A DNA stretch of 64,000 nt from Liolophura sinensis (taxonomy: Eukaryota > Mollusca > Polyplacophora > Chitonida > Chitonidae): positions 8,507,704 through 8,571,703 of the forward strand of contig NC_088304.1 in the NCBI RefSeq assembly GCF_032854445.1, given 5' to 3'. Made by a program: the position numbers and the translations under genes. A model generated the notes under the pieces. That model was not told the DNA's origin. It saw only the letters and a list, made by a program, of their open reading frames with translations, and made no database searches. Shown here in pieces: positions 1 through 18,560 of this stretch; within the stretch, counting starts at the first letter, position 1, and every line of letters starts with the position of its first letter.

Positions 1-490
1 GCCCGTGTGTGTTGTGTGAACGTCAACATGCGGACTTCACGCTGTTTTATGCATATGTTTATATGTGCGTGTTAAACTTAGCCACGACGTGACTGGTCGT
101 TGTTTTGTTCTCACAATATACCAGCATATGCCGCGATCATAGAAAGCGTTCGCGAACTACACGTCTTTGATTTGCGAACCAAATGCTAAATCACTCGGTT
201 TTACAAAGTGGCTGACAATGTCAAGACAACAGCAGGCTACGATCTGCATTCTAAATTCATTGAGTTAGTCTATGGTTCGGTCCTCACCACCTGAGTGAAC
301 TGTCTGGATCACCCAGCATAAAATAAAGTGAACGGTAAGTCAAGTCTTGCCGCGTGGCGCTCGTATCAGACAGCGTAGCTCAATAACATAACAGGATTGG
401 GATGTAGCTCAGGTGCCCGACATAGCAACGGCGCACACTATAGGTGCCAGATCCATACCAGCCTTGCACTGGCAGGAGATTTGTACATCC

Positions 491-734
491 ACTCAAAAAA
501 TTAATCTATTAATTGTCACAGAAAGCCTGTTACATGCGAGTGATGCTGGAATGTATTCGGCTATTTGTAACAGATTATTCTGTTAAATATACCACATCGA
601 TTCTATTAATTCAACGTGAAATTTCGATTAGACTAACAATATTATGTTGAATATCACAGTAGTATGTTATAACAGAATACATTCCAGCATCACACAGACA
701 AAAGCCTTTATGTTAAAATTAACATTTTTTGAGT
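491..734. mobile_element. M1 foldback MITE, copy 1
   Basis: It starts ACTCAAAAAATTAATCT and ends in the inverse complement TTAACATTTTTTGAGT. The inner arms carry GTGATGCTGGAATGTATTC and its complement near 680-700. Imperfect inverted repeat of about 75 bp around an AT-rich centre, no ORF: a non-autonomous foldback DNA element. Two further copies occur in this window. Confidence 0.75.
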
Positions 735-789
735 GTGCCCCACTGTCTCTGTTAACAGATATGCTGTATATCTTTTAGTGAGAGTGTGC

Positions 790-1150
790 TTGGGGTTTAA
801 CGTGATACTTAACAATTTTTCAGTCATATGGCGACGGAGGAATCCTTAGGGATCGTGTAATGTGCCTCCTTGTTGCAGGACGGATTTCCACCACTCTTTT
901 ATCTAGTGCTGCTTCACTGAGGCGCCTAACACCGAAGGTAAGTAAGCTGCCCCACCCGAGCCATTACACTATCCCCCTCATGCTGAACGCCAAGCGAGGA
1001 AATTACAACTTCCTCTTTTAACGTCTCCACCCAGGATTGACTCCGGATCTGTCGTCTGCAGAAGCGGGCTGTATATGTTTTATATTGTAAAGTAAACCAC
1101 ACAGCGTTGACGAGGTGCATGATCTCCTACCGCCTGATTCCCCTTAGAGT
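790..1150 (-). mobile_element. SINE-B copy (tRNA-derived, minus orientation)
   Basis: Read on the plus strand it runs from the tail (TTTAACGTGATACTTAACAA, CATATGGCGACG) through GCAGGACGGATTTCCACC and CTAGTGCTGCTTCACTGAGG to a decayed tRNA-like head near 1130. The same order occurs at 10725-10945 and 44373-44575, and in plus orientation at 18877-19110 and 25000-25317. Confidence 0.75.
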
Positions 1151-1436
1151 GTACTGCTTCAAGCAATTTTTAACAAATGGATCTAATGAATTTAGGATAA
1201 ACTGAGCTTTAACCACACAGTACATGTAGCTTGGTTTTCATTTCACACAGAAATACAATCGCATTTTGATGCGTCTGAGGCAGATTCCACCAAGCCATTT
1301 TAAGGTGAAGACAAAGTTTGTCAATTTATGGATCCTGAAGGAGATCAAATTGGTGGCTTGTATATACAGTAACTATTATAGCAGGAAAATTTATCACAAA
1401 TGGTGCGTTTTTGGTCGTAGTATGACTGGAATGTTA

Positions 1437-1687
1437 ACTCAAAAAATGATCTGTTAGATTTAGCAGAAAGTCTGTTGTCTGAGTGATGCTAGAATGCATT
1501 CTGTTATTGCAGCAGATTGTACTGTTATATTTAACACACATATTCTATTAATCGAACACAAATATTCTGCATGTATGAGACTTACAAGACATGCTGTTGA
1601 GTATGACACCGTATTATGATATAATAACCGAATAAATTTTAGCACCACTCAGATTTTCCTTTTAAAAATGACTGATCACTTTTTGGG
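1437..1687. mobile_element. M1 foldback MITE, copy 2
   Basis: Same terminal ACTCAAAAAATGATCTGTTA and internal GAGTGATGCTAGAATGCATT as copy 1. The right arm is decayed (ends ACTTTTTGGGT). Only about 700 bp from copy 1. Confidence 0.7.
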
Positions 1688-2649
1688 TGAACGCGTCAAA
1701 GAAAACACATGTATAAATGAAGAACAGACGAGGAGAAGTGTTCAGCAAGCTCAACACGCCGAAATTTTATTGTATCAGAACCCGAGGTGAGAATTTCTCC
1801 ACTCGGTATCCTTGAGACAGTTAGGCTGGCGAGTAGATATGGTGCATGACCCTATTACAGCATTAAATAAGTGTGGCAGATCTTAAGTACAAACTGTTTG
1901 TTATTGGCTTAAAGCGACTTTACCCGGTGTAACAGAACAAAAAAAAAAGTCCAACAAAAAAGCGTCGTACTGAATAAGCAAACAAAAACGAATGGCTTTG
2001 ATATCGTCAGTGTCTTTCATTGAATATAAAATTAAAATGTTTTGTAGAGCAGTTTAAACAGCTGAACTTCGGTCAAACAGCTTGTATAGCCTCTGTTACG
2101 TCACTGGTTAGTCCAAGATGCTTATCTCCATGACAATGCCTTCATGTGTCTTGACGATTTCTGACGTCATCAATCCGCAGACATCACGTGGTCACCTGGA
2201 CTACGTGTGCTCTCGACGCAGTAACGTTCATGGCTCGCAGAAATATACGTAGAACTGAAAATAAGCAAATTGTTCTGGTTAATTTTAACGTGTATCCAAC
2301 TCACTCAAATATCCATTTGTAACATATGCCACTGAGCATGGTTAGTAACTGATTATCATTGTCATTTACTTTGCAGTTCGGGCAAAATGGTTTCTAACAG
2401 GATAAAATTGATCATTTATTAAAAATTATCTGTTTCTCGATAAACACGCTATTTCAAATTATAAATACTATGAGATGGTTAAAGAAACTACAACAGACGC
2501 CTTGGAAGAAACAATGCAATGTCATAAGGAAAGATTTGTTCCTTGCCTTGTTTGATGGGTTTGTAACGTGGCTTTCAATATTAGTTCGGTCTTTTCAAGA
2601 CGATGTCTCCTTGTAGCTGACACTCAATGCCTCCATATAAGCATGCTTG

Positions 2650-2850
2650 AGCAGCACAATGGGAGCCCCTCGCCAATGTGGTCGCTGTGAGTTCAAGTCC
2701 AGATCTTTCTGGATTCCTCTGCGGTCTTCATCCAGCAACCTGCGGATGGTCATGGGCTCGGTTTTCTCCCACTATAAGTATGAGTGAAATATTCTTGTGT
2801 GTAGGTTGATGCACCAATCAACTAAATAAATAATAAATACATAAACAAAT
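2650..2850 (+). mobile_element. SINE-A copy, decayed
   Basis: Contains GTCGCTGTGAGTTCAAGTCC, CAACCTGCGGATGGTCATGG, AGTGAAATATTCTTG and a tail CACCAATCAACTAAATAAAT. These blocks are shared with the better-preserved copies at 15541-15805 and 51114-51387. Confidence 0.75.
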
Positions 2851-3156
2851 TGTAGCAGACATAAGTTTCTGGCACTGCCTTACTGGCATGATACTCACAC
2901 TAGGGCGACCAATACTTGGCCAATTCCTTTAATGCTGAGCAAGCAAGCAGGGCAGTGCCAAATTTTTCGGGATCGAAACGTGTCTGATAGAAAGCCAGTG
3001 ATGCCAACTGGAAAACTATGTCCGTCTGAGGTGAACTTCACACCTTCAGAAAACCAACCGGTTTAGTATAAACCCTACATCTGACAACAGTTTCAAACCA
3101 CACAAAATTTTTATGTGCGTGTACACATATCATTTGGTGTTGCGTTTTTTTCTTAC

Positions 3157-3236
3157 CTCGTCGATATAGCCAGTGAAATTCTGATAGCCTTGTCCGTGAC
3201 CTATGATAAGAGGGCTATGCGTACGCCTGATTATAC
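3157..3236 (-). CDS. PIF: Pif-like exon 10: LamG domain, last part seen
   Basis: 80 nt, phase 1 in and 0 out: GIIRRTHSPLIIGHGQGYQN then FTGYIDE. The I-G-x-G...F-x-G-x-I-D-E end is the last strand of a LamG fold; the closing hydrophobic strand and cysteine should be on the next exon, which I could not find at 1-3156. Acceptor TTTTGTTTTCAG, donor GTAAGA. Confidence 0.85.
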
Positions 3237-6200
3237 CTGAAAACAAAAAAGTATCATGCAATGTAAAACATAAAAAAGACCCCCGCGTTACCCACGTTTC
3301 CACCATTACTAAAAACTTTCTTTGGAATTAAGCCTATTTCTATATATCTTTAATTGGTTGTTTTACTCAGAAATCAAGAACATTTCACTTACACCCTGGT
3401 CAGTGCGAAAAACACGCCATGGCGTGGTAAATTTACAAGCACAGGCATTAATGTACTAGCTATCAATTGCCATGACGTGGTGCGTTTACAAGCACTGGCA
3501 TTTGATAGAATGCTATCAGTTGCCATATAGTAGTGAGGTCACAAGCATTGGTATTAGATAAAACACTATCAGTTGCTATGACGTGGTGCGGTTACAAGCA
3601 TTGGCATTAGATAGAATGCTATCAGTTGCCATGCCGTGGTGAGGTCACAAGCACTGGCATTAGATAAAACGCTATCATTGCCATGCCGTGGTGAGGTCAC
3701 AAGCACTGGCATTAGATAAAACGCTATCATTGCCATGTCGTGGTGAGGTCACAAGCATTGGCATCAGGATAAAAAAATGTTGTCAAATGCTATGGCGTTC
3801 AGAGGCTACCAGCATCAGCATTATGGTACACACTTTCAAATACCATGACGTAGTGAGGTTACAAACATTGTTATTAGAGTAAGCACTGCCGACTGCATTG
3901 ACTTTCTGAGCTTACAAGCATCGGCATTAAGGTATAAGCTGCCAGTTGCCATAGTGGACCTACCTGACAGATCCACGGACTGTGTCGACGTGGCGGAGGT
4001 GCCGCTCATTTCACGCCTGTCGTACACATACCTCACGTCCGTCCATCCGTCCTGAAAGGGAAACATTTGAATCACTGACTTGTTGATTGGTTAAATGAAT
4101 GGTTTCTGAGCTGTGGATGTTTGCCATGGTTTACGAAAAGAGGGACATTCCGTGATTCATTTCAATAGGGGCATCACGTGGTTTACTACAAGAGGAACAT
4201 CACGTGGTTCACTTAAAGAGGAACATCACGTAGTTCACTACAAGAGGAACATCACGTGGTTTACTCCAGGAGGGAGTTTCCTTTAGTGTGAAAGGTTCAT
4301 TTTAAAAGAAGCATGGAGTGCTAGATAAACATAACGAGGAAAAGAGGAGCATTTCGTAGTTTACCCTAAGAAAGGCATTACGTCGTTGCCCCAAAGCGGA
4401 GCATGGCGTGGTCAAGAGGGACATACGTACCCTGTAACTGGTCTGTGTCGTCGCCTCACCCTTCTGCGTCTCCGTGTAATAACTGACGTCATTGGAACGG
4501 CGTTCCGAGGAGATTGCCAAGGACGGTTCATCACCGCAGTTGCCATTGGTTACCAGCGCCTCGGGTTGGCTGCCACTTGGCGATTGATCGGATTCTTTAA
4601 ACCGGAAGCGGATTTCGACGTATGGCGGGAACTCGATGTTGTTGTAGCGGTAAATCCAGACAGCGTCTGAGCCATCGAATTCCCCGGCCCCTCCGCCGAC
4701 AGCCCCAGAAACTTGAGCGATGACCGCCCCTGAGTTCCCAACTCCTCTGTCCCAACCTGAATGATCAGCGAAGTCTTCGTCCATCGGCAGGTAAACATCA
4801 GGTTCGCATCCTGTCGATTAAAACATATTAAAATAGAAATCTTCACGTAGTGTAGTTTAAACTTACGTTGAGTAATTAGCTACACTGTAGTTTGCTGTTT
4901 TGATACCTAGATGAATAAACCGGGAATGCGCGGGTGGACAAGCAGCATCCTCGAGGAATTGTCCCTTAACATTGCTTTAATCTTACTGTCCATTAAATAC
5001 GACAACACAGCATTTTGATCAATTTTAGACCAGTACATGAGATCCAATAAACTGCAATTAACACATCTGCATTTTGGGGGTTTAATTCTTCTTAAGCCAA
5101 CGTGCCAGAGGCTACCATTTAAGCCTTTGGATGAACAGTTCGAAAAAAAAAACCCCGAGAAATGGACAAGAGGGCCGTATTTCACCAGTTACGTTTGATC
5201 ACTTGCCAAAAAAGTCATGGCTGCTTTTGTTTTGCTTGCAGTGTTGTAGCCTATAGTCTTGTATTGTCCAAGTTATCTCTTTAAAAAAAATTCGTCTCGT
5301 CCTTACATGTTAAATGTGATGACAACACAGCGTTTTGAGAATTCTATACCACTGACGTCCAATAAATTGCAGTTAACATTGTCCATTTTTTTTTACGTAA
5401 TTCTGCTTAAACCATGGTGCCAGGGCTCGTGTAATTAGGACTATTTATGTATTTACATGAACAGTTAGAATAAAAGCCTGACTGCGGTAAATGGACAGGA
5501 GACCATATTTCACCTGTTATGTCTGACCATTTGCCAAATATCACCCAGTCGTGACTGCTCTTGTCTTACTCGCTATGCTGAAGCCTACTGTCTTGTATAA
5601 TCCAGGTTATCTCCATATTCCCTCACAGTTATTTACTTTATTTTCTTGCTTGTTGTTTAACTCACGAATGTTTGACTTATACGATGGTGGTCACTTATGG
5701 GTAGAGGAAAACGACTTCATGTCCACCAAATTCTCGCTTCTCTATGTGAATTTTCTGGGAAATGATAGTTTCGCGTGATCACACCATGCAAATCTCGCTT
5801 TAAAATGTGATTTCGCCTTACACGAATTTCAACCTAAAAAGTTATGACGCGTATAACAGCAGACAATGATGGGGTTTTTGGCCGACTTTTTTAAGCGTGA
5901 ACGTTCAGTATTATTCCGTTTTAAACCTATATTTAAGCAGCTCAAGAAACCGTGATTTCGGATTACACCAATATCACCCAGCAGAGAATGATGTTTTTTC
6001 TCTACCTTGAGAGACCGACTTCTTTAGGTGAGAAATGTTCCATATTATTCTGTGTGAAGCCATTGTGAAAGGGATACAGAATCGATGCTGATTGGCTGAA
6101 CCCTGATCCCTTCAGATTTGGCTAAGCATAGCCTGGGCATTCAGCCAATCAGAATCGCATCCCTTCAAAGCAGCATAAGAATCGAATTTCGCCATGACCT

Positions 6201-9200
6201 TACCCGTAACAGGTCTCTGAGTGGGTAAACCTATCCTCTTGTGACAGCCACAGGTTGTCTGGACAAAGGCTAAGCCCGCCGCACACGGTTGTCTCGTCTT
6301 CACACCGTTTACATCGACCAAGAAAAACCTCTCGTCGGTGGAATCCGCCAAGAAGAGACAGTCTCCTAGAATCGATAACATATCGTTGGCTACCATTGGT
6401 TCAGTACAACTGTTCAGTGTTATTTTTGATTATTTCGATTCTACATCTATATAGTTCTTTTTTTAAATTGTTTACAGGATTATTGTTTAACGCCATACTC
6501 AAGAATGTTTCAATTATACGACGACCCGGTCAGTTTTAAGGGTTGAGTAAACCTGAGTGCCAGGGGTAAAGAACAAACCTTTGGCAAGTAAATGACGAAC
6601 TAACGAGTCCAGGCGATTGAAAGCACTTTTTTCGGCCACGATCCACATTTAATACAGCGCTGTGTTTAGATGAGCAGCTGCATCTAAACAGACTTTCCAA
6701 TATACCCGGATTGATCCGGGTTATATCGAAGAATATTCGGATTTGTTTTAAAGAGCCATATTAAATAATTTATAACTCAAAGAAATGATTCAACATTTTT
6801 CACGAACTGTTGGCCAACACCCAAAGACAAAAAAGAAACATCAGGATTTTCTATCCCACCGATCAATGCATGCAATTTTATCACTTACCTCCCGGATTAC
6901 CGACACGGCAGAAAGCGCTAAGACAGTTGTTGTCTCTGACGCACTCTCCTCTGGCATCGTCAAAAGCAAAGTTTTCTGCACAGCACCTCTTGCCGAGCGT
7001 GTAACCGTTGCCACAAAGCCAGTAGACACCACAGTCGGTTGGGTCACCATAAGCCTTCAAACCAGTCTCCGTGCGGCATCGGTCTGTGCAAAACCAGATA
7101 CAGAGAGGAATCCGGATGAAGTCATGTAAAATTCGCGCGACAATTTTTTTCCGTATCGATCCTGTCTATTTCACTGCTTTGTAGTTAGTTCTTTATCGCC
7201 CTACTTAAAGGCAAATAAAACAATAACGTGAAGTATATATCAATGAAATACCATTAAAGACTGTCCATAAAATATTTCGATTTATTTCGGTTTTTCAACC
7301 TAGAAAAATGCATTTGGAACTTTGGATTCTAAGGTGGCCTTTTTTTACCATATTTGGACCAGCAACGTCACAGTGTGTCTTTGCCACTTAAAACACATAT
7401 ACTGTTAGATTTCGCCATTCAAATTACATGTACATACAGATTTATGAATGCATTCACTGAATGCTCATTCAGACGAAACATTGGAAGTAAAATACTATGG
7501 ATACGATACAATATATGATTTTCAATATTTTCTCGGCTGGAAAAAAATCTAAGACAGTAAATCGAACAGTGTTTATTGGCCGTTCATCAGGTTTTCTTTG
7601 ACTTTAAATATTTTAAGTATTTACTTTATGGTCACACGCCAGAATTTTTCACCTGCACGATGGCGCTTAGTTTTATCGGTAAAAAGCGGGGGAAAACCAC
7701 CGACCTTTAGCAAAGTTGTTACACACTTCCCCACGTGTGACGTCCAGAGATACACACGCTATACCGGTGGAAGAACCTTGGTACTCAACGAACGTAAGAC
7801 TGCACAAACGGCATCGTTGACTGATTATTGCCACCATGCACACAATGAACCGTGAAAAGGTAAGTGTGAAAAATCAGTCGTGTTTTTTTTGGTTTTCCAC
7901 AGCGCCTCGCAGGAGCCGGGCTAATTTCCAGATGTAAAGTCACAACCCCCTTTATTCAGACAGGACTCCACTAATGGCCAGTCTGAAGTACTGTAACACT
8001 AAGACCGGATGACATGTCTTAGTATATAATTTACGTATATGACTCATTCAGCCGACAGATGACTTACCTACGATCAGTAAGTTGGACAGGCTGAGTCACC
8101 ACGAGATAAGCTCATTTGACTCATCTTGTGGACAGATGACCTATCTGAGTCACACTGACATTTTACTCACCTCCAGGACATTTAACCTGGTTAGGGTAAC
8201 GACAGGTCAGGGTGTCTTCTTGGTCCCAGAACAAGCCTCGGGGACAGTCAAATACCACTGGCGCAAAGGCTCGGAACTTCCCGTTACCCAATGTCTGTAT
8301 ACTGCATCGAATGAACTTCTCACACGAGTCGGGGTGGCGAGCAAACCCGGCTCCGAACTTGATCCGACAGTCTTCGCAGCCTGAAACACATTCATGTTGT
8401 TTAAACCTTGAGCTCTTCAGTGTCTGGAGGTAATATGGGATAGCTTCCAACAGATTTCCGCAATCACCCAGCTGTCTGTGTCCACTCTCACATCTCACGA
8501 ACAAGAGGCCTCTGTGTGGCTTTTCTGGAAACCCAATTCAGTGACGCAAAGGCTTTCCCCGGAATTCTGCTGCATCAATGGCTAATGGACAGCTCTAATT
8601 ATCAGTTCATATTATGGTAACTCTAACAGAGATACAGCTTTGGTTTGTTTTTCTATCTGTCGAACCGGGTCTTTAAAAATCGCAAAAATTAAAATTTGCT
8701 GATCAAGAGTATGTAGGAAACAGACTTTACCGACTGAGAAACTTGTCTATCCTTTTAAGCGCAGAAAGAATCGTCACGATAAAAAGCTGACTGTAGAAAC
8801 AGACTCACCTGGTGCAATAGGATCAACAGGTCCTATTCGCGTCGACGTAGTCGTTCTCGTTGACCACGTTGACGGGGTACGCGTTGTCGTTGTCCATGGT
8901 GTCGTGGTGCTCCTTGTCCGTGGAGTTGTTGTTGTCCACGTTATCGGAATACGCGTTCTCGTTGTCCACGGTATAGTAGTGATGTACCTTGGCGTTGTAG
9001 TGGTGCGCCTTGTGGTTGTCCATGTTATCGGAATACGCGTTGTCGTTGTCCGCGGTGTAGTGGTGCGCGTTGTCGTTGTCCACGTTATCGGAGTACGCGT
9101 TGTCGTTGTCCACCGTGTCGTGGTAGATGGTGTCCTTGGCGTGGTGGTTCCTTTTCATGAAATAAGAACCACGTTATTAGCTATAACATAAGGCTGCAAT

Positions 9201-12200
9201 ATAATCTCCAGATAATGTAAAGTACCCTTGTGTATCGGCCTTTCTATGTCAAACTAGAATCTGGATGTCTCAAATACCCACTTCCATTCCGCCAACATTT
9301 CCAAGAATAAATAAAAGTAAAAATAATAATCGGGCTGTCGTTATTATTAAGCATGTAGATGTTTAAATGATATAAAAGATCTGCACAAAGTTACAGGGAA
9401 ATCGGTGAAATATATGTATTTTTGCAGGAGTTGTATGCAGAAAATCTGTGTACATGAAAATCACTTATGGCACTAAGTACCTGAACGGGAGAAATAATGA
9501 AAATAATTACCCGATCGTAATTCAACTTAAGAGTGCAAACATGTACACGACAGGGGATATATCATGGAAATAGGTGCAGTAATTTGGAAAGAGTTGCTTG
9601 GACAAAATTTGAATACATGGAAAAGCACTATTACGAAAAAACGTGTATAAAGACAGACGGACAGAAAGACAGAGGAACAGTGAAAAGTACCTTGTAGTAC
9701 AGTGGATATACAGGCTACACTGTCCTTTCGGCTACTATACTCTGCGCTAAACAACAGTGCAGCTCGCATCATTGAAGCGAACAGGATCAAAACCGTATGG
9801 CTCGAATTTTTAAGTACATATCTGTTAATCTGTCAAATCTGTCAAGAGGGAATGCCCTCACTGCGAAAACGAGACCCTCTCTTCAAGAACAGAGTTTGTC
9901 AGAGCATAGTAATGCTTCTGAAACGAGGATTCTCAAGCATTTACGCTTTCCCTATTAGTTCACCATTTTGAATTTATTGTCTCTGCCTAGGGAAAATCTC
10001 AGCCAATCAAACGGCGGCAGTTCATCAATGGCTGGGTCTTATGAACAGGGGAGTCAAGGCAGGGGACTAGCTTGAGAAGGATCTCGTTCGCCTAATCGTA
10101 GACGAACAAAGATGCTTAGTCCAGGAGAACTTGGACTATATAAACACGGAAGTAGAATTCGAATGGACCAACATTGGGCGGACTTGGAATAGGCATTACA
10201 TGCATTTCTGTCTTAGTTCGTGATAAGTCAATATAGATAGCACCAACTAGATTTGACCTCCGTGAGACAACAATGACAAACTGCCGTTTTCCACTGTTGA
10301 TGAATTTGACCCTAGCTTAAGTTTTCATCGAGATCACGGCAGTTAGTCATATGGGTGGAGGAGACCACAGAGACCTTTGACACGCTACTAGCAAACTTTC
10401 CATCATGTCACGAACAGATATTTACATTGTGTTAATGGACGACAAGTGGTCATCAACAAACGTAAGAACCTGCTGATGTTCGTGGGTTTCCTCCGGGCTC
10501 TGCCCGATTTCCACCCACCATAATGCTGAAATATTCCATATAAAACACCTATCAAATAAATACATAAATAAATAAATAAATAAATAAATAACAAACGTTA
10601 GAGTACGCAAAACATCACATGAGCGAAACGTCAACCACAAATTGTTCCCAAGGCCCAACAAGCAATGGAATCGACAAATTACCTGTGCATGGCTGATTTT
10701 TAACCCGCATCTCGTATGTTACTGTATAAGAGTGAGAAAGTGAGTCCCTGGGGTTTGACGTCGTACGTAACAATTTTTCTTGTCATGTACCTCCTTGTTG
10801 CAGGACGGATTTCCATCGCTCTTTTATCTAGTGCTTGCTTCACTGAGACGCCTTACCGAAGGCAGGTGAGGTCTTAGGTGTGACTCCTAACTGACCCTGG
10901 ATCTACCGCTCCCGAAGCGAGCGCTCCACCAACTGTGCTATAGGGGACGGTTATTGTATTAGAAAAGCAGACACTTTTAAACAGTAGACAACTGTTCGCT
11001 CACTTGTTTTCGTACTCCGCATACTGAATAATACACGTAAATCAACATAACTAGCAGGCCTATACTCACCGCAATCGAAAACTGCGCTGAGCTTCTCGGC
11101 ATAGTTAATCATGGCAAAGTCGTCGAAAGTTTTCGGAGTGAAGACAAGATCTTCACTACTGGCTATCTTTTTCAGCTCGTCTGTGTCAATTTGTCCTTCA
11201 CTTCCTATACCTATTGATACCAACTTGATGTTCTGATTACGGGCTTGTCTGGCAACGGCGACCGTCTCGTCATTGTCGATGGACACACCGTCAGTGATGA
11301 GCACAGCGATGCGGTTCTCATTAGGTCGACCGTACAAACGGAACATCTCCTCCATGACTTCGATGCCCCGAGCTATGTTCGAACCTTTGCTCGGCAATCG
11401 GAGGTTGTCGACGGAGTTCTTGAGACTGGCGGACGAAATGGTGTTACTCAAACGAATGTCAATGGTGGCATCGTTACTGAACATGACCAATCCCATGCCA
11501 GCCCGGCCGTCGCCCAGACTGAAGTGGTCGATCTGGTCTTTGACAAAGTCTTTCATGATCCTCTCCTCTGCTACGCTGATACTTTCGGACCCGTCGAAGA
11601 TGAAGACAATGTTGCCGTTCAGTTGACAACCTGGAGGTATGTCAATACGGAAAGTTAAAAACAACAACAACAACAACAGAGGGTGTTTGGACTGTCGATG
11701 TTACGAGATCACATTCAGCGTGATCCACCATCGATGGTGCAAATCACTGCACTTTATATGCATACAATAATGGAAATTATCAACAAAAGATGTATTTTTT
11801 CGACTTACCTTGCTAATCGTCCAAATTTAATATTTCATAAAAATGTCCTCGTCATGTATAACATTTATTATTGTATATACCTGCATCATACACCTTACAG
11901 CGCATGCGTCGCTCTCTACCAGTAGCAGCCGTAGAGAGCGGCGCATGATCTGTACAGAGTATACTCCTACAGTTGAAGTGACAGCCCGGACGTAATCAGA
12001 AATGAATCACATTTCACAGCGTCAAGCCGCTCTAAAAAAGACATTTTTAAATGAAATTCCCACTAAGAAATGCAAGTTTTTCTTACGCAACCATACGTAC
12101 CATAATGTCGTAAAAACAACACACTATTTAATGTGGACGTAAATTTATTACCCGCAAGAAATAACGGAAAAGAGCTTTCAATGAGATATACAGACGTGTT

Positions 12201-14955
12201 CCACCCACTGCTGTGTCATACCACAATGTGTTAGATATTTCATCACGCTCTCTACTTAATAATTGTAATTCCTTATTTAATATACGCCACCAAAACACAT
12301 GGGAATGTTCTTGAAAATACAAAAGGACTGAAAATCTTATGTTCACTGTAAGCAGTTCGGCGTTAACCGAACCTATGTAACGGCCCAGAAAACACAAGCA
12401 TGAAATATATGTCAGATAAAGGTCTATACAGTACCGTCCAGGAAAATAATTAAATTTGTTTTTTTAGAATATTTTTCGATCTAGTGAAATGCATTTTCAG
12501 CTTTGGATTCTGTTTTCGCCTTTTCTAATCATATTGGGACAAGTGACGTCACAGCAGGTTTTGGCACGTGACAGATTGTTAGATTTCATCACTCAAAGTG
12601 CATCTACAGTCACTAAACTGTGAATGCGTTCACCAAATGGACCCTGAAACAAACTATTTCAAGCCAAAAGTACAGCTGTGATGTCACTGATACACCCAGG
12701 GTCCCACCGTAGAATCCTATGTTTTAAACACCTGTTGCTTGGTAAGAAAAATTCGTCTCGGATTATAAAACTTTACATAATGGCTTGCAAAAGATGTTAC
12801 TTACCCTGGTCGTTGCGTGGTGTTGTTGTGGCTGTAAGTGACAAACAAAAGAAAAGAATCGTGAAATTAACTTGGCATTTTGTGCGCAACTACTCCAGCT
12901 TATACTTTGTGTGGAAGAAAGGTTTCAGTTATACATTTACATGGATAAACACTGAGATTATGCTGCACAGACTAAGGTAATACTGCCCTGATTTTAGCCT
13001 ATGTTGCATAGGTTTCATCTTACATTGTACAGGTTTCAGCTTATACTGTGTGTACAGTTTTCACCCAACCGTGCCCTGGTTTTTCAGTGAAGCTATTTAA
13101 GCCTTGATCGTCTTGATGACGTGTATTGTTAACTGGGACAAGCAGCTATATAAGTAACTCGGTTTGTCGGTCAGTCAGTTGGTCCAATTTTTGACATCCC
13201 ATCTTATAGCATCGGCCATTGTCTTAACCTGGGAACTACATGCAAGATGACATCAACTTTTCGTGAAATGTTGCAGCTAATGTCTACTGGGAAATTGTCC
13301 TTTTCTATCTTCATCTATCAATGATTGTTGCCGGATTTAATCTAATTAGTTATTTTCATTGTTTCTGTTAAAACCGTCAATTGCAGGATTATGCTTTTTG
13401 TCGCATTGATTAATACGTCAGTATTAATTAGGATCACCAATACTGACGTGATCATCACATCGTTACCATGACAACCACCGTATTAAGGTACGTACTCATG
13501 ATACAGATTTCGTGGTATGGAATCCTCAGCATGTCCAAAGCGGGGAAATTCTCCACTTTCTTCACAAATTCCGGCTTAGACGCAAGCGCTTTGAGTTCTG
13601 TATCGTCCGTTTCCGGTCCGACGCCGACGGCTACAATTGAAATGTTATTATCTTTCAAGGCCTTTGCCTCCAGGCGAGGCGGCGACTTGTTTCTGGTATC
13701 ACCGTCAGTGATGAGAACAACGATCTTGGTGGCATCTGGACGTCCATGAGCTTTGTACAACTTCGCAGCCTCTCGCAATGCACTCGCTGTGTTAGTTCCA
13801 AGTCGGGGCTGTTTTAACTTCATAATGTCGTTTTCCAGCTGATCCACGTTAGTGTTGCTATTAAAGGGAATCACGTCAGAAACGTCGTCGCTGTAGACGA
13901 TCACAGCCACGTTAGCGCCGTCATCAAAGACGTTCAATGCTTCCACTTCTCGCCTGACGTAATGTTGTGTTATGTTGAAGTCTGAGCGACGGATACTTTC
14001 CGAGCCGTCCAGGATGAAGATGACGTCAGCAAAGGGAGAGCATCCATGCTCACGAAGAACTGTCAACAAAATAGAAAGCAGATGACGTAAAATCACAATC
14101 ATGATGCCACTTGAAACTAAATTTAAGGCACCGTATGCTCTCGAAAATAGGGGAAATTACCCGATTCCGGTAGTTTTAAGATTCGTCAAAGTTTAAACCT
14201 TAAACCCCACACAGTCATTTACGCCTAATATATTGCAATCAACATCTCTCCATTGTTTTTACGTAGTTCTACCTAAACCATGGTGCCAGGGGGCATATAA
14301 TCTGCAACTATTTAAACATTTACATAACTGAGGTAAATTGACAAATGTGACCATTGCCAGCTATCACACTATCGTCGCTGCTCTGGTTCTACTCTCTATA
14401 CTGTACGTCTATAATTACATAAATAATGAGGCCACAGTCCCTGAAAATGCCAGCACCTGTGTAGAAATATGAACGATTTCAGCTCATAGAGTAAAATCAG
14501 GACAGTGACGACTCTGACCCTGTGAAATGCAGCTTTCTTAGTTCTCTGGCGGTTTGTGCTAAGCGTCATTTTGAGAATTGGCCTTGCTATTTGACCTGGA
14601 ATGTCCATTTTGGTTGATAGTTATTATATGAATATCTCTTTCGATCCGGATATTCCGAGTGTTCTTGTAGGTGATTAATACGTAGCAACTTGGAAACCCC
14701 TAACATCTTGGCGTAAGTTGAATTATGTCAAAAAAGGGCAGTTACTGGTTTAAAAATACTGAAAATGCCGTGCTGCCATCACATTTAGTAAAGAATCACA
14801 ACAAAAGCAATGACAGTATATATGTATAAAAGGGGAAAAATAAATTTAAACTGGTGGAATGATACTCACGGTTTCGTGACAGAGAAACTGAGATAAATGT
14901 AAGGAAAACAAAGCCTTGTAACATGTTGGCAGCCATTGTCCCTGCGATAGGGGAT
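3157..14955 (-). CDS. PIF: Pif/BMSP-like shell matrix protein gene (2x VWA, chitin-binding, LamG), 3' end not seen
   Basis: Ten coding exons, read on the minus strand: 14936-14870, 14059-13496, 11630-11070, 9150-8809, 8380-8171, 7083-6889, 6365-6204, 4810-4431, 4051-3964, 3236-3157. All junctions are GT-AG and the phases join exactly, giving 2649 nt or 883 open codons. Domain order: signal peptide (1-20), VWA (about 33-205), VWA (about 216-395), Thr/Arg/Pro-rich linker (399-511), peritrophin-A (513-581), peritrophin-A (583-646), a Cys-rich module (648-700), LamG/ConA-like (702-883+). VWA plus chitin-binding plus LamG is the known layout of the mollusc Pif and BMSP families, secreted nacre/shell matrix proteins that bind chitin and mineral. 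Pif usually has one VWA and BMSP four; two here is intermediate. No in-frame stop is reached after exon 10, so the C-terminus is missing. The family call is firm; Pif versus BMSP orthology is not. Confidence 0.9.
3430..3955. repeat. 52-bp minisatellite in a Pif-like intron
   Basis: About ten imperfect copies of a 52-bp unit with core GGTCACAAGCACTGGCATTA and AACGCTATCA..TTGCCATG. Successive ACAAGCA blocks start near 3436, 3488, 3539, 3592, 3645, 3696 and 3748. It fills most of the intron between exons 9 and 10. Central copies are nearly identical and outer ones diverged. Confidence 0.85.
3964..4051 (-). CDS. PIF: Pif-like exon 9: LamG domain, middle part
   Basis: 88 nt, phase 0 in and 1 out: DGWTDVRYVYDRREMSGTSA followed by a Ser/Thr-rich turn ending VDLSG. 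D-G-W-x-D-V-R-x-x-Y-D is the central strand of LamG domains in Pif-like proteins. Acceptor TTTCCCTTTCAG, donor GTAGGT. Confidence 0.88.
4140..4300. repeat. 28-bp minisatellite in a Pif-like intron
   Basis: Four or five copies of about 28 bp with core GAGGAACATCACGTGGTTCA. Degenerate units extend to about 4430 (AGCATTTCGTAGTTTACCC, GGCATTACGTCGTTG). It abuts the donor of exon 8. Confidence 0.8.
4431..4810 (-). CDS. PIF: Pif-like exon 8: LamG/concanavalin-like domain, first part
   Basis: 380 nt, phase 1 in and 0 out. It begins GCEPDVYLPMDEDFADHSGW and continues GVGNSG, then GGGAGEFDGSDAVWIYRYNN and PPYVEIRFRFK. The opening (P-x-D-x-x-x D-x-x), the GxFDG turn and the V-x-I-R-F-x-F strand are typical of LamG/pentraxin-like jelly-roll domains. 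Acceptor AATCGACAG; donor CAGG|GTACGT. Confidence 0.88.
4985..5270 (+). mobile_element. M2 MITE-like element, copy in a Pif-like intron
   Basis: Starts near TACGACAACACAGCATTTTG, then ATAAACTGCAATTAACA, the block TTCTTCTTAAGCCAACGTGC, TGAACAGTTCG, GGGCCGTATTTCACCAG and CTTGCAGTGTTGTAGCCTA. The same block order recurs at about ten places in the window. Confidence 0.7.
5308..5592 (+). mobile_element. M2 MITE-like element, second copy in tandem
   Basis: GATGACAACACAGCGTTTTG, AATAAATTGCAGTTAACA, TTCTGCTTAAACCATGGTGC, CCATATTTCACCTGTTA, CTCTTGTCTTACTCGCTATG. It lies directly after the previous copy in the same orientation, in the intron between exons 7 and 8. Confidence 0.75.
6204..6365 (-). CDS. 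PIF: Pif-like exon 7: third cysteine module, degenerate peritrophin type
   Basis: 162 nt, phase 1-1. It starts GDCLFLADSTDERFFLVDV and contains QPCAAGLAFVQTTCGCHKR. The pattern C-[PA]-x-G-x-x-F-x4-C-x-C resembles the C-terminal half of a chitin-binding module found after the canonical domains in Pif-type proteins. It has fewer cysteines than exons 5 and 6, so chitin binding is uncertain. The donor chosen is ACGG|GTAAGG, which keeps phase 1; a weaker GT lies upstream (GTTTAC). Confidence 0.8.
6889..7083 (-). CDS. PIF: Pif-like exon 6: peritrophin-A chitin-binding domain 2
   Basis: 195 nt, phase 1-1. The frame reads DRCRTETGLKAYGDPTDCG, then VYWLCGNGYTLGKRCC, then NFAFDDARGECV and NNC. Six or more cysteines have peritrophin-A spacing and the Y-W pair follows the C-x-x-Y pattern. 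This frame is not found by simple ORF calling, because longer antisense and out-of-frame ORFs cover it. Acceptor TTTTGCACAG, donor GTAAGT. Confidence 0.9.
7275..7510. repeat. E-family interspersed repeat, copy 1
   Basis: Shares GGAACTTTGGATTCTA, GGTGGCCTTTTTTTACCATA, TTGGACCAGCAACGTCACAG and GTTAGATTTCGCCATTCAAA with copies at 12455-12790 and 45045-45500. No ORF. Lies in the intron between Pif-like exons 5 and 6. Confidence 0.65.
8171..8380 (-). CDS. PIF: Pif-like exon 5: peritrophin-A chitin-binding domain 1
   Basis: 210 nt, phase 1-1. It begins GCEDCRIKFGAGFARH and shows the CBM14/peritrophin-A spacing: Cys, then H-x3-C-x2-F-x2-C, then F-D-C-P-x-G-L-x-W-D, then two closing cysteines (TCRY, VKC). 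Aromatic residues F and W sit where this family contacts chitin. Flanked by a strong acceptor (GTGTTTCAG) and the donor GTGAGT. Confidence 0.92.
8809..9150 (-). CDS. PIF: Pif-like exon 4: Thr/Arg/Pro-rich repeat linker
   Basis: 342 nt, phase 1-1, residues 399-511. The frame set by splicing reads GGTTTPRTPSTTTRW and continues as imperfect repeats of the type TTTTRTPITW, nearly half threonine with regular Arg, Pro and Trp. It ends VDPIAPG into the chitin-binding exon. Such Thr-rich linkers are probably O-glycosylated spacers. The DNA is a GC-rich minisatellite. Another minus-strand frame is also open over its whole length and would be Asp/Asn-rich, but only the Thr-rich frame joins both neighbours in phase. 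The acceptor ends GAAAAG and the donor is CCAG|GTGAGT. Confidence 0.82.
10425..10945. mobile_element. SINE-A fragment followed by an inverted SINE-B fragment
   Basis: 10430-10591 has the SINE-A 3' half in plus orientation (CGTGGGTTTCCTCCGGGCTC, CCACCATAATGCTG, AATAAATACATAAATAAAT). 10725-10945 is SINE-B in minus orientation: GGGGTTTGACGTCGTACGTA, then GGACGGATTTCCATCGC, ending in a tRNA-like GATCTACCGCTCCCGAAGCG segment and CCAACTGTGCTATAGGG. Lies in the intron between Pif-like exons 3 and 4. Confidence 0.75.
11070..11630 (-). CDS. PIF: Pif-like exon 3: second VWA domain
   Basis: 561 nt, phase 1-1, residues 211-397. The MIDAS residues are D223-x-S225-x-S227 (DGSES) and D324 (LITDGV). The third position is S294 (KGSN) where exon 2 has Thr, a conservative change that should still be able to coordinate metal. 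Core strands NIVFIF, GMGLVMFS, RIAVLITDG and IKLVSIGIG are clear. The exon ends in VFDCG with donor GTGAGT. Domains 1 and 2 are clearly diverged, so the duplication is old. Confidence 0.92.
11885..11965. mobile_element. Short hairpin: fused TIRs of the F-family MITE
   Basis: Arms CAGCGCATGCGTCGCTCTCT (from 11898) and GTAGAGAGCGGCGCATGATC (from 11931) are near-complementary over 22 bp with an 11-bp loop. The arm matches the terminal repeats of the F element at 53451-53784, so this is an F copy reduced to its ends. Lies in the intron between Pif-like exons 2 and 3. Confidence 0.7.
12455..12790. repeat. E-family interspersed repeat, copy 2 (longest)
   Basis: TCAGCTTTGGATTCTG, CATATTGGGACAAGTGACGT, TTGTTAGATTTCATCACTCA, CGTTCACCAAATGGACCCTG, CACCGTAGAATCCTATGTTT. 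The last block also occurs at 45415 (CACCGTAGAATCTGGTGTTT), which shows the full element extends well beyond the first block. Confidence 0.65.
13496..14059 (-). CDS. PIF: Pif-like exon 2: first VWA domain
   Basis: 564 nt, phase 1 in and 1 out, encoding residues 23-210. The metal-ion-dependent adhesion site is complete: D40-x-S42-x-S44 (DGSES), T111 (in LGTNT) and D141 (in LITDGD). Hydrophobic VWA strands VIFIL, VAVIVYS, IVVLITDG and ISIVAVGVG are all present. The acceptor is TTTGTTGACAG. The chosen donor is A|GTACGT; a second GT lies 4 nt downstream, but only the first keeps the frame into exon 3. Confidence 0.92.
14195..14405 (+). mobile_element. M2 MITE-like element, partial
   Basis: CCCCACACAGTCATTTACG, TATTGCAATCAACATC, TTCTACCTAAACCATGGTGC, CTATCACACTATCGTCGCTG. 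Same block order as 5308-5592. Sits in the first coding intron of the Pif-like gene. Confidence 0.6.
14870..14955 (-). CDS. PIF: Pif-like exon 1: 5' UTR end and signal peptide
   Basis: The start ATG is at 14936-14934. The 22 residues encoded start MAANMLQGFVFLTFISVSL, with a hydrophobic core typical of a secretory signal peptide, and likely cleavage near residues 18-21. The donor GTGAGTATC follows directly (phase 1). A good acceptor (pyrimidine-rich, ending CCAG) lies 19 nt upstream of the ATG at 14956, so a separate upstream non-coding exon is implied but was not found. ATG at residue 5 is a possible alternative start. Confidence 0.85.
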
Positions 14956-15540
14956 CTGGAATGAAGATCAAAAATGAAGAATAATAGAAACAACTATATT
15001 GTTACACATAATCCGTCTAAAAAGCTACCTGTACATGTAAATATCAGAGAATAAAGTTTCATGTGATATAGTCTAGTTGTGATCTCGGAGTCTTGAGTAA
15101 AAATAGTATATTTAGACGACCAGAATGTCATGCAAGGTACTGAAAATACCCCACCCCCCATTCAATAAGCAGATAGCTGTTTCGAGTGGTGAGTCAGAAC
15201 GCGTGTGCGTTACATGTCATAGGTGAGATAAATAATAGCATATGGTCATTGTTTATGACTATAGTACAACATTAAAGTCTTCGCCGACAGCCCAGAATTC
15301 AACTCTTCAAATGTATTTTTCTCATATTTCGACTTGAAACTGTGCTAGAACCCATGTAAAGTCTCAGATGTCACAACGAGTGGAATAAAACACACGGAGT
15401 TTGCTGAACTGTGTGTTACTGCCGAGGGTCATAATGCTTTAACACGGTCATGTGGATTTGTTTGTGACGCAGCGATGAAATCTCGATCATGCGCACTAGA
15501 AACAGTTATCCATCTTATTGTTGGGTGGGGGGTGGGGGGG

Positions 15541-15805
15541 GCTCCGTGGCTCAGTTGTTAGCGCGCTAGCGCAGCGTTATGACCCAGGAGTCTCTCACCA
15601 ATGCGGTCGCTGTGAGTTCAAGTCCAGCTCATGCTGGCTTCCTCTCCAGCCGTACGTGAGAAGGTCTGGCACAACCTGCGGATGGTCGTGGGTTTCCCCC
15701 GGGCTGTGCCCGGTTTCCACCCACCATAATGCTGACCGCCGTGGTATAAGTGAAATATTCTTGAGTACGGCGTAAAACACCAATCAAATAAATAAATAAA
15801 TAAAT
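15541..15805 (+). mobile_element. SINE-A, near full length
   Basis: The head GCTCCGTGGCTCAGTTGTTA (A-box-like) is followed by GTGAGTTCAAGTCCAGCTC (B-box-like GTTCAAGTCC), body blocks CGTGGGTTTCCCCCGGGCTG and CCACCATAATGCTGACCGCC, and the tail TTGAGTACGGCGTAAAACAC then (AAAT)n. Typical tRNA-derived SINE layout. A second, minus-oriented fragment follows at 15845-16005. Confidence 0.88.
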
Positions 15806-15844
15806 ATTGTCATCTGACGCCATGGCCGATTTGAATTTTCTGGG

Positions 15845-16005
15845 ATTTATTTATTTATTTGATTGATCAAGAATATTTCACTTATATGACGAAACAAGCA
15901 TTATATGATGGGAGAAAACCAGGTAGAGCCCGGGGGAAACCCGTAATAATCCGTAGGTTGCTGACATACCTACCCACATACGACCGGAGAGGAAAACAGC
16001 ATGAA
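15845..16005 (-). mobile_element. SINE-A 3' fragment, inverted relative to the previous copy
   Basis: Begins with (TTTA)n TTTGATTG, then AAGAATATTTCACTTATATG, GGTAGAGCCCGGGGGAAACC and CATACGACCGGAGAGG. Tail-to-tail with the copy at 15541-15805, giving a potential foldback of about 150 bp. Confidence 0.75.
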
Positions 16006-17289
16006 CTTTTTTGGGAGTATTTATGATTACGAATATGCTGATATGCTGTTGTAACTGTATTGTTTTGTAATTTGTCTTGCAGTAACAATGTATTTAGTGG
16101 GTTTTCATTCCTTTGCCCTGATATAGTGTGTGTGTGATCTCAGTTCGTTTCAAGGCACGTTTCCGTTTCATTACATGGTTACAGTAACATAGGAACATAC
16201 CCCATTCCCAACCAAAAGAAGAATTATATGCAAAAATATTAACCATAAGAGCAAAAGAAAATTCCCTAAGTGGAATGGCTAATTGTAATGTTTGACGAAG
16301 CAATCCACTAAGATATTCTAGGCAAAATATGCTTCTCACAAAACAATTAAACACTGGCAATGTATTCTCAATATTTTATGAAACACACAAATATTGTGTT
16401 ACACACCATGACAAAAGTGGACGCTACTTCATCGTTGTCACAGGTGCATCTAATTCCGCTTAAGGTTAGGAACATGTTAACATTCGTGCTCATTGCATTA
16501 ACATAATACTTTTATGAACAGTTGCAATAAAAGCGCGATAAAGATATCTATATGTGTATTCCACCTGGAAATCATTCACACTGTACGAGTTCAAAATTTG
16601 AACTGGATATCATGCCTAGAATAATGTCTTTCATCCATCATTCAAAACTGTTGACCGTTTCTCTCTTGCACGTTACAAGCTGTACTTATAATGTATAGGT
16701 TATTTCTTACAAATTTTCCGGAAAATAGAGTTTTAGGTTGGTTTTGAAACGAGTCGTGTGATTACCAATTTGGAATGCTTTTATTGGTGTACGTGTGGTT
16801 TACGAATGCCGTTCCTCACGCTCAAATTCTGACTTTGCGTCTGTGAAAGTGATTTACGCTGATTCACCTTCCGGCAAACCTGTTTATTTACTACAAAGGC
16901 TATTTCCACAAACCTAAACTGCAAACACAATGGTGTCACACTTCGCACGACATCAGTACAAAATCACGTGTACGTAATCCTGCCTGTATCCCGCCTGGGT
17001 GGCCGAACGCCTCCATGCTTCGCGTCATTCGTCCAAGTTGACCTATCTGAAATCCATTGTGTTTGTTTTTTTTTTTTTTTTGTTTTTACCCCACTTTTTT
17101 GTCAAGGTTAAGAGTTTAATTAGATTGGCAAAAAGCTGTTAAATGCGTTATTTTGACGTAAGAAGCCGTCTGCGTTGTACCGCCACATGTCAGACGCGAG
17201 ATCACGCGTCTCTCCACGAGAGTTGCTGTTATGGAGATTAGGCGCGTAATGAGTTGATGGTAAAGAGGGTTGATTGCTTCCATGCTATC

Positions 17290-17430
17290 GTTTGTTCAAT
17301 TTAACGATAACACAGCATTTTGGGTAATTCCAGGCCGGCGAGGCCTACTGAATTGCTGTTAACATCACTGGATTTTTTCTACTTACGTCACGGTACTAGG
17401 GATGTATAAGTTGCTGCTGTTAAAACTTTG
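17290..17430 (+). mobile_element. M2 MITE-like fragment
   Basis: TAACGATAACACAGCATTTT, TGAATTGCTGTTAACATCAC and CTTACGTCACGGTACTAGGG match the first half of the M2 element. Confidence 0.5.
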
Positions 17431-17664
17431 CAAGAATTTATATATTGTTTTACCGATTGATGGTATGAACTGTGACTTGGGTACTTGTCTTACTATAGTA
17501 TAGGTGTACATTTCAGTTTGCTACTTAAACAAAGTTCTTCGCAATTCCTTTTTAATAACATTTATTATTCTCACAATTCAGAGAAAAATTCTCTTCGGGT
17601 GAAAATATTGATCATCTTGATGAAATATCATGCCGTATACCCACGCAACACGCTGGTGTAACTT

Positions 17665-17915
17665 ATATTTATTTATTGATTTGGTTGGTGTTTTACGCCG
17701 TACTCAATACATACGACAAATATATAATATTTCACATATACCACGGCGAACAGAATTATGGTGTGAGGAAAACGGACACAGCCCTGGGAAAACCGACGAT
17801 CATCCACAGGTTGCTGGCAGACCTTCACACGTACGGCCGGACAGGAAGCAAGCATGAGCTGGACTTCAACTCACAGCGACCGCATGGTGAGAGGCTTCTG
17901 GGTCATTACGCTGGT
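17665..17915 (-). mobile_element. SINE-A copy, inverted
   Basis: TTATTTATTGATTTGGTTGG, GTTTTACGCCGTACTCAATA, CCCTGGGAAAACCGACGATC, CGTACGGCCGGACAGGAAGC, GGCTTCTGGGTCATTACGCT. The 5' end (tRNA head) is truncated. Confidence 0.8.
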
Positions 17916-18429
17916 GTAACTTATAAATTGACGTGTATATTCTTGATTTCCAAACTTTAACAACAGTTGTTTACAGAAATATATTTTTTGTTAGGTTTCA
18001 CTTTGCATAATTCCGTCCTAATTTCGTGCTTCACATACATCCTTAGCTCTTAAGTGGTTTGTGTTATCCGTCGTTTTGGGAATTGTCCTTGCGATTATTG
18101 ACCTGGAACGTCCTTTCTGGTTGACGGCTAGCAAACGAACGTCTGTTTCGACGCACAGACTCACGAATACCATATTTGCACATATTTAGACCTTAATGTT
18201 AACGATTTCTTACCACGCCGGTTCACAAAAGCAATGATATCATTACTAGTTTTACTTAAATAACACGTTCCTGGATACATGTTGTGTGTGGACTTCACAT
18301 ATCTTGCTTTGTAACGTGTATTACATGTTGTTTATCGAGTCCTGATTTCAGTGTATTTCACAAATTATTAACTGAATATAAAATGTCTGTATACTCAATG
18401 TATCGCGTGTATTCATTTTAGCTGTAACT

Positions 18430-18560
18430 TCATTTATTTCTTTGATTGGTGTTTAACGCAGTACTCATGAATATTTCACTTGTTCGACGGCGGCCAGCAT
18501 TGTTGTCGGAGGAAACCGAACAAAGCCTGAGGGAAACTTACGAATTTGCGCAGGTTGCTG
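18430..18560 (-). mobile_element. SINE-A 3' fragment, inverted
   Basis: TTTGATTGGTGTTTAACGCA, ATATTTCACTTGTTCGACGG, CGGCCAGCATTGTTGTCGGA, then a decayed end near 18560. Confidence 0.7.

What the first reader, a model, noticed from the sequence alone, without database searches (positions are those of the whole stretch)
3157..14955. A Pif/BMSP-like shell matrix gene with two VWA domains, recoverable only by exon joining
Seen: ten exons with GT-AG borders and matching phases give 883 open codons with order VWA-VWA-Thr/Arg linker-CBM14-CBM14-Cys module-LamG. Known: Pif has one VWA and BMSP four, both with chitin-binding domains. The two-VWA form with a Thr-rich spacer is an unusual intermediate that may illuminate how the shell-matrix family diversified.
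Basis: partly seen in the sequence, partly recalled or inferred. Interest (0 to 1): 0.7.

Follow-up and report, generated by a model that had tools for sequence, protein, structure and literature searches.

The report
Chiton two-VWA shell-matrix-type gene
This is a real gene of a chiton (an eight-plated mollusc) for a probably secreted, chitin-binding protein of the Pif/BMSP shell-matrix type; having two VWA domains is not a unique evolutionary intermediate, because the same genome holds many related genes with none found, one or two of these domains.

Summary
On the minus strand, ten exons with GT-AG borders and matching phases join into exactly 883 open codons in the stated order. The model was incomplete: it ends at a splice donor, not a stop. 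A small last exon at 2254-2228 (FYVYFCEP, stop) completes an 891-aa protein; a like exon follows in 10 of 10 family members in which the preceding exon was found. Contig sizes identify the genome as the chiton Liolophura japonica.

Pif/BMSP-type membership is well supported: two VWA and two CBM14 domains, and the Cys-Cys doublet in the second chitin-binding repeat described for Pif and BMSP.

The "unusual intermediate" reading is not supported. Two-VWA members and Thr-rich spacers are published in Lottia. In this genome 18 loci share the LamG-like exon; two carry two VWAs, ten carry one, four show none within 9-10 kb upstream, two were not examined. The other two-VWA gene has the same whole order, Thr exon included, and is sister to a gene with no VWA found (99/96). 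VWA number looks labile. Expression and function are untested.

The parts
14870..14936 (-). Exon 1: start codon and hydrophobic N-terminus (signal-peptide-like), ends in phase 1
   Evidence: signal peptide judged by eye, no predictor run
13496..14059 (-). Exon 2: first VWA domain, phase 1-1
   Evidence: VWA, 127 bits
11070..11630 (-). Exon 3: second VWA domain, phase 1-1
   Evidence: VWA, 101 bits
8809..9150 (-). Exon 4: 114-aa Thr/Arg/Pro/Trp linker (57 Thr, 16 Arg, 14 Pro, 7 Trp; net charge +15), tandem repeats in the DNA, phase 1-1
   Evidence: weak acceptor; Thr-rich phase 1-1 exons at the same place in three paralogs
8171..8380 (-). Exon 5: CBM14 chitin-binding domain 1, phase 1-1
   Evidence: 40.9 bits
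6889..7083 (-). Exon 6: CBM14 domain 2 with Cys-Cys doublet (KRCC), phase 1-1
   Evidence: (26.7 bits)
6204..6365 (-). Exon 7: four-Cys module, degenerate CBM14-like, phase 1-1
   Evidence: (14.3 bits, below cut-off)
4431..4810 (-). Exon 8: LamG-like domain, first part, phase 1-0
3964..4051 (-). Exon 9: LamG-like domain, second part, phase 0-1
3157..3236 (-). Exon 10: LamG-like domain, third part (..GYIDE), ends in phase 0 at donor GTAAGA
2228..2254 (-).

Best explanation
One member of an expanded Pif/BMSP-type gene family in the chiton Liolophura japonica. It encodes a matrix scaffold of about 891 residues. Its CBM14 repeats would anchor it to chitin in the forming shell plates or girdle sclerites. 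Its two VWA domains, both with a metal-site-like motif, would bind other matrix proteins. The basic Thr-rich linker would space the two ends, and the C-terminal LamG-like domain would add a further binding face. Shown here: exon structure, domain content, paralogs of the same module order. Inferred from work on other species: secretion, chitin binding, protein binding, a role in mineralised parts. The second VWA reflects loose gain and loss of phase-1 VWA exons in this family, not a fixed intermediate stage.
For: Spliced frame and domains. Same module order in all 7 loci rebuilt from DNA, counting this one. Cys doublet in the second CBM14 in 7 of 7 (sequences), as described for Pif, BMSP and Lottia relatives. 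Matching last exon in 10 of 10 loci in which the GYIDE/GYMDE exon was found, of 11 looked at. Both VWAs keep DGSES, GTN or GSN, and TDG (meaning of the motif recalled). Pif97 VWA interacts with five nacreous-layer proteins of Pinctada (abstract of PMC11291548). Chiton homologues g24122 and g24110 have highest mRNA in girdle (PMC7850002 section 6). Mussel PTMP1, a two-VWA matrix protein, is the second-best solved relative of both VWAs (E 7.5e-28 and 2.5e-28) and is reported to bind collagen (abstract passage of PMC4754843).
Against: No transcript, proteome or second-chiton sequence was available, so use of the exons and any role in mineralised parts are untested. The LamG-like part has no Pfam match, no PDB profile match better than E 0.91 and no Foldseek match under 0.001. 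The best solved VWA relative is vertebrate-type collagen VI, so VWA similarity alone does not say 'shell'. No Pif80-like acidic stretch was found on the gene's strand in window 1-15000, so direct control of carbonate is not suggested.
Confidence: 0.8

Rival explanations
1. The two-VWA form is an evolutionary intermediate between one-VWA Pif and four-VWA BMSP.
For: It has two VWAs, numerically between one and four. The second two-VWA gene here has the same whole order, so a shared two-VWA ancestor inside chitons is conceivable; holding this gene, 27.27 and 27.295 as one clade is not rejected (p-AU 0.192).
Against: Two-VWA members are published in Lottia and the authors infer independent duplications. 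The other two-VWA gene is sister, on LamG plus CBM1, to a locus with no VWA found (99/96), and joining the two two-VWA genes as one clade is rejected at p-AU 0.0224 (this gene has a long branch). VWA1 and VWA2 are 26% identical, less than each is to several paralog VWAs.
Confidence: 0.07
2. The two VWA exons belong to separate genes or alternative isoforms, so no protein carries both.
For: Both exons are phase 1-1, so either can be skipped in frame; the intron between them is 1,865 bases.
Against: No signal-peptide-like start between them was listed by a coarse pattern search; phases match across the join; a paralog shows the same VWA-VWA-Thr-CBM14 order.
Confidence: 0.12
3. A general extracellular-matrix or defence-type VWA/chitin-binding protein (for example of gut or cuticle) rather than a shell or sclerite matrix protein.
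For: Collagen VI and byssal PTMP1 are the best solved VWA relatives; CBM14 is common in this genome (149 matches, a lower bound); no expression data.
Against: The Cys-doublet second CBM14 together with VWA is the combination described for Pif/BMSP and Lottia shell proteins; chiton Pif homologues are girdle-biased.
Confidence: 0.25

Closest known systems
Lottia gigantea Lgi140660 (BMSP clade) and Lgi236719
   Same: Two tandem VWA domains, in a matrix-protein family with chitin-binding domains and a Cys-doublet second repeat
   Different: Sequences not compared here; the 140660 model has no signal peptide and is thought a fragment; no Thr/Arg/Trp linker is mentioned for it in the passages read
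PifN subfamily (bivalves) and Lottia 239574, 228264, 232022
   Same: Thr-rich stretch before the chitin-binding domain; complete LG domain in PfuPifN
   Different: Here two VWAs and a strongly basic Thr/Arg/Trp linker; the Lottia motif is 59% Thr in the one case given, here 50%
Pinctada Pif (Pif97/Pif80)
   Same: VWA, chitin-binding domains, LG-like C-terminus
   Different: One VWA there; LG split there by a long insert rich in Asp, Arg and Lys, uninterrupted here
Bivalve BMSP
   Same: Tandem VWAs, then chitin-binding domain
   Different: Four VWAs there, two here; no BMSP100-like part seen here
Acanthopleura granulata Pif (g24122) and Pif-like (g24110)
   Same: Chiton members of the same family, highest in girdle
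   Different: VWA number of those genes not given in the text read; orthology to this gene not tested
Mussel PTMP1 (PDB 4cn8)
   Same: Two tandem VWAs in a mollusc extracellular matrix protein
   Different: Byssal; described as composed of two VWA-like domains, so without CBM14 or LamG-like parts

Membership tests
Pif/BMSP family (Shimizu et al. 2024) | One or more VWA domains upstream of CBM14 | tested here: met
Pif/BMSP family (Shimizu et al. 2024) | VWA falls in the Pif/BMSP clade of conchiferan VWAs | not testable with these tools
   No conchiferan sequences held. Within this genome both VWAs lie on the side of a 92/91 branch that holds all 11 paralog VWAs used plus two other VWAs; holding paralogs and this gene as one clade is neither shown nor rejected (p-AU 0.289)
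Pif/BMSP family (Mann et al. 2012) | Second chitin-binding repeat with an extra Cys doublet | tested here: met
   KRCC in exon 6; doublet in 7 of 7 rebuilt loci; description
Pif/BMSP family (Shimizu et al. 2024) | LG domain, whole or in two parts, at the C-terminus | tested here: inconclusive
   No Pfam match; conserved exons in paralogs; exon 8 model, pLDDT 90, aligns to jelly rolls, best Z 9.3, thrombospondin-1 N-domain Z 4.7; Z under 8 may be only a common arrangement
Pif/BMSP family (Shimizu et al. 2024) | Expressed in mantle or found in shell | not testable with these tools
   No RNA or protein data; hydrophobic N-terminus seen in sequence only
BMSP subfamily | Four tandem VWAs (bivalve form) | tested here: not met
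   Two VWAs; a profile search of window 2001-22000 on both strands finds no third at E<=0.01
Pif subfamily (sensu stricto) | LG domain interrupted by a long polar or acidic insert (Pif80) | tested here: not met
   Exons 8-11 run without insert; no 30-residue stretch with 10 or more Asp/Glu in minus-strand frames of window 1-15000
PifN subfamily | Thr-rich insert between VWA and CBM14 | tested here: met
   114 aa, 50% Thr
PifN subfamily | Grouping with bivalve PifN sequences and presence in nacre | not testable with these tools
   No sequences or proteome; chiton plates lack nacre according to PMC7850002

The most novel reading that the evidence does not exclude
In chitons the Pif/BMSP family evolves by shuffling whole phase-1 exon cassettes (VWA, Thr linker): members with no VWA found, one and two VWAs sit in one genome, and the second VWA of this gene was captured from another family member rather than copied in place. 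VWA copy number would then be a quickly tuned binding valence of matrix scaffolds, changed independently of the bivalve and gastropod expansions.
Probability: 0.3. Interest if true: 0.5.

Novelty: new member of a known kind. Interest (0 to 1): 0.35.

Why it matters
Chitons belong to Aculifera, the sister group of Conchifera, and their matrix genes bear on what the ancestral mollusc used. Varney et al. report two Pif homologues in the chiton Acanthopleura; here 18 loci in one chiton genome share the LamG-like exon, with variable VWA number and linkers. That is a natural series for testing what VWA number and spacer do, but this single gene is an ordinary member of it.

Tried and rejected
Intermediate hypothesis: tested by counting VWAs per paralog and by a gene tree; weakened.

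My own first reading that the second two-VWA gene lacks a Thr linker was wrong: its listing had hidden short Cys-free frames. A later check found a Thr-rich frame with phase-1 borders between VWA and CBM14 there and in two one-VWA genes; C3 showed none.

VWA trees do not resolve whether VWA1 and VWA2 are sisters: p-AU 0.41 and 0.471; all six pairings tested are unrejected, so no claim is made on where the second VWA came from. One search put paralog VWA 27.27a, with 34.40, weakly on the outgroup side (43/48).

Terminal exon: one search listed 25 candidates for a motif set by eye. In one search the pair FYVYFCEP / LKVYLCKP ranked 14th, below pairs that look like repeats or low complexity. The motif was written after seeing that pair, and it was no denser on the gene strand (3 in 31.9 kb) than on the reverse strand (4 in 44.7 kb; shuffles 0.385 per 15 kb), so the motif alone proves nothing, and two of five genes had none under it. 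Six more paralogs settled it: short exons such as LYVYLCAP, LYVYLTCRP, FRVYKGCLPEL and LYIYKCLV follow GYIDE or GYMDE in all 10 loci where that exon was found (11 looked at; 34.40 lacked it). In most of them other candidates also passed the looser filter; the choice rests on likeness.

LamG: one PDB profile hit, E 0.91 (9 rows); Foldseek none under 0.001. VIA-align rows are mostly clostridial toxin binding domains and an S-layer domain of jelly-roll shape; taken as fold only.

Rows dropped: the VWA tree used 31 rows, two of them ours, of about 150 VWA places per search; pieces under 140 aa were dropped, including both halves of the frame-broken VWA in L032, and one duplicate piece of L024. Alignment A3 used 17 of 18 LamG-like rows. 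Five weak LamG hits on C7 (E 0.006-0.48) were not followed. One-VWA status of 26.92, 26.946, 26.958, 27.00 and 27.21 rests on coordinates; in 26.92 and 27.21 the VWA lies 12-18 kb from the CBM14 exon and may belong to another gene. Loci 17.38 and 30.93 were not examined for VWAs.

One search used a poor pattern and the wrong strand for minus-strand loci; redone. tRNA and Rfam scans of the window: nothing. Two large ORFs at 36816-40139 and 45680-46663: no Pfam match; the phrase 'two VWA domains' occurs in none of the 12 papers listed (of 49), but Shimizu writes 'two tandem VWA domains'. Liu et al. 2024 on chiton plate proteins is known only from a sentence in PMC12046283; it was not among the six papers listed.

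Full report
WHERE IT IS. The window is G000:C10:8507704-8571703. G000 has 609,464,459 bases in 632 contigs. The published Liolophura japonica assembly has 609,495,693 bases in 632 scaffolds (passages of PMC11068029). Contigs C1 (96,433,062), C8 (58,388,612), C9 (37,343,639) and C4 (25,057,479) have exactly the published lengths of scaffolds 1, 4, 5 and 12; C6 differs slightly from scaffold 2. The genome is therefore that chiton. The identification is mine, from sizes.

THE GENE MODEL. On the minus strand the ten exons run 14936-14870, 14059-13496, 11630-11070, 9150-8809, 8380-8171, 7083-6889, 6365-6204, 4810-4431, 4051-3964 and 3236-3157. Exons 2 to 7 are all phase 1-1. Exon GC is 0.518 and intron GC 0.394. 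DNA alone cannot show that every exon is used. Exon 4 has the weakest acceptor and repetitive DNA that is open in other frames too; separate Thr-rich phase 1-1 exons at the same place in three paralogs speak for it.

THE MISSING END. Exon 10 ends at GAG|GTAAGA after the peptide GYIDE. In 10 of 11 family loci looked at, this one included, the matching exon ends in GYIDE or GYMDE before a GT donor. In all ten a tiny exon with a stop follows: FYVYFCEP here, and LKVYLCKP, LYVYLCAP, LYVYLTCRP, VEVYFNCFPDET, FQYFDCLP, FRVYKGCLPEL, VRISKCL, and LYIYKCLV twice, elsewhere. Here it lies at 2254-2228, 902 bases on. The protein is then 891 residues. Early motif tests alone were no better than chance on the reverse strand; the paralog set is what carries the claim.

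DOMAINS. Pfam: VWA 215 bits over two copies; CBM_14 56 bits over two copies; exon 7 matches CBM_14 below cut-off (14.3 bits); nothing for the 183 residues of exons 8-10 at E<=1. Both VWAs keep DGSES and TDG, with GTN in VWA1 and GSN in VWA2; reading these as a metal site is recalled knowledge. The linker is 57 Thr, 16 Arg, 14 Pro and 7 Trp of 114 residues, net charge +15, in a protein that is -14 overall. The first LamG-like exon, modelled from 17 aligned family rows, has mean pLDDT 90. Foldseek finds nothing under 0.001. A second look aligns it to jelly rolls with Z up to 9.3, and to the thrombospondin-1 N-domain at Z 4.7. That fits a LamG-like fold but does not settle it.

THE FAMILY IN THIS GENOME. 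A search with the LamG-like part gives 25 matches: three are this gene's own exons, 17 became paralog rows, five weak ones on C7 were not followed. With this gene that makes 18 loci, 16 on contig C10, ten of them at 26.8-27.3 Mb. In the seven loci rebuilt from DNA, counting this one, the order VWA, CBM14, CBM14, Cys module, LamG-like is constant. VWA number is not. Two loci have two: this one and C10:27.26-27.28 Mb, whose VWAs are 39% identical. Ten have one: five read in DNA (7.59, 27.147, C3, 26.83, 34.40) and five by coordinates only. Four have none within 9-10 kb upstream: 27.295, 27.197, 7.552 and the C6 locus. Two were not examined. One single-VWA copy (26.958) has a frame break in its VWA. 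A Thr-rich stretch lies between VWA and CBM14 in 6 of the 7 rebuilt loci: as a separate phase 1-1 exon here, in 27.27, 27.147 and 26.83, and in the open frame of the CBM14 exon in 7.59 and 34.40 (1464 aa in 34.40). C3 showed none. So the whole order claimed as unusual recurs in 27.27.

TREES. On LamG plus CBM1 the two-VWA locus 27.27 is sister to 27.295, where no VWA was found (99/96). Holding this gene and 27.27 as one clade is rejected at p-AU 0.0224, though this gene has a long branch; holding the three together is not rejected (p-AU 0.192). VWA trees are poorly resolved: VWA1 and VWA2 as sisters is not rejected (p-AU 0.41; 0.471). Identity between them is 26%; VWA1 is closest to the C3 locus (35%) and VWA2 to 26.946 (32%). 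Either the duplication is old or the second VWA came from elsewhere. The data do not choose.

COMPARISON WITH WHAT IS KNOWN. Shimizu et al. 2024 (PMC11291548; abstract and sections 12, 13, 17, 19 read) define the Pif/BMSP family: bivalve BMSP has four VWAs, two Lottia members have two, the octopus and scaphopod BMSPs have one, PifN has a poly-Thr insert, and PfuPifN a complete LG. They infer independent VWA duplications and place chiton Agr_g24110 at the base. Mann et al. 2012 (PMC3374290, section 13 read) report two VWAs in Lotgi1|140660, a Thr-rich motif before the chitin-binding domain in Pif-related Lottia proteins, and a Cys doublet in the second chitin-binding repeat of Pif, BMSP and the Lottia proteins; they doubt whether that repeat binds chitin. 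The doublet is present here in 7 of 7 loci (sequences). Varney et al. (PMC7850002, section 6 read) report two chiton Pif homologues, highest in girdle. Among solved structures, collagen VI and the two-VWA mussel byssal protein PTMP1 are the nearest VWA relatives; PTMP1 is reported to bind collagen (passages of PMC4754843).

MECHANISM. Most likely a secreted scaffold: chitin-binding repeats hold it on chitin, VWAs hold other matrix proteins, the linker sets distance, and the LamG-like end adds another contact. The domains are shown; the actions are inferred from Pif97 and PTMP1. Two VWAs would double the binding valence at one end. No Pif80-like acidic stretch was found, so direct control of crystals is not suggested.

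VERDICT. As biology it is a new member of a known family. The interesting part is the surrounding family, in which VWA number ranges from none found to two.

Noticed in passing
G000:C10:26.8-27.3 Mb (outside the window; loci L004-L006, L008-L011, L015, L017, L019, L021 and others): Cluster of ten Pif/BMSP-like loci on the same contig, including a near-identical pair (26.946 and 26.958) of which one has a frame break in its VWA exon.
   Followed up: partly
G000:C10:34402300-34417000 (L035, L053, L007, L025): A single-VWA paralog whose CBM14 exon lies in an open frame of 1464 aa, most of it Thr/Pro/Ser-rich repeats.
   Followed up: partly
G000:C10:27298100-27308600 (L066, L071): A Pif-like locus with a signal-peptide-like frame upstream of its CBM14 but no VWA found within about 10 kb, sister to a two-VWA gene.
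   Followed up: partly
G000:C10:27145764-27156950 (L019, L050, L008, L026): A one-VWA paralog with a separate, almost pure Thr/Pro linker exon (phase 1-1).
   Followed up: partly
window 3416-3774 and 4127-4273: Minisatellites (53-base and 26/52-base units) inside two introns of the LamG-like part.
   Followed up: no
window 32731-33124, 48439-48774, 58524-58674: Further tandem arrays with units of 72, 31/183 and 32/54 bases.
   Followed up: no
window 36816-40139 and 45680-46663, minus strand: Long open frames (1107 and 327 aa) without Pfam match; possibly exons of one neighbouring gene.
   Followed up: partly
window about 2790-2840, 10490-10590, 15600-15830, 17670-17890, 18430-18560: Similar-looking dispersed stretches, some beside TAAATAAATA runs, perhaps one interspersed repeat family; judged by eye only.
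   Followed up: no
G000:C4:17.96-18.03 Mb: Long array of VWA-bearing frames about 1.8 kb apart with equal or nearly equal scores.
   Followed up: no
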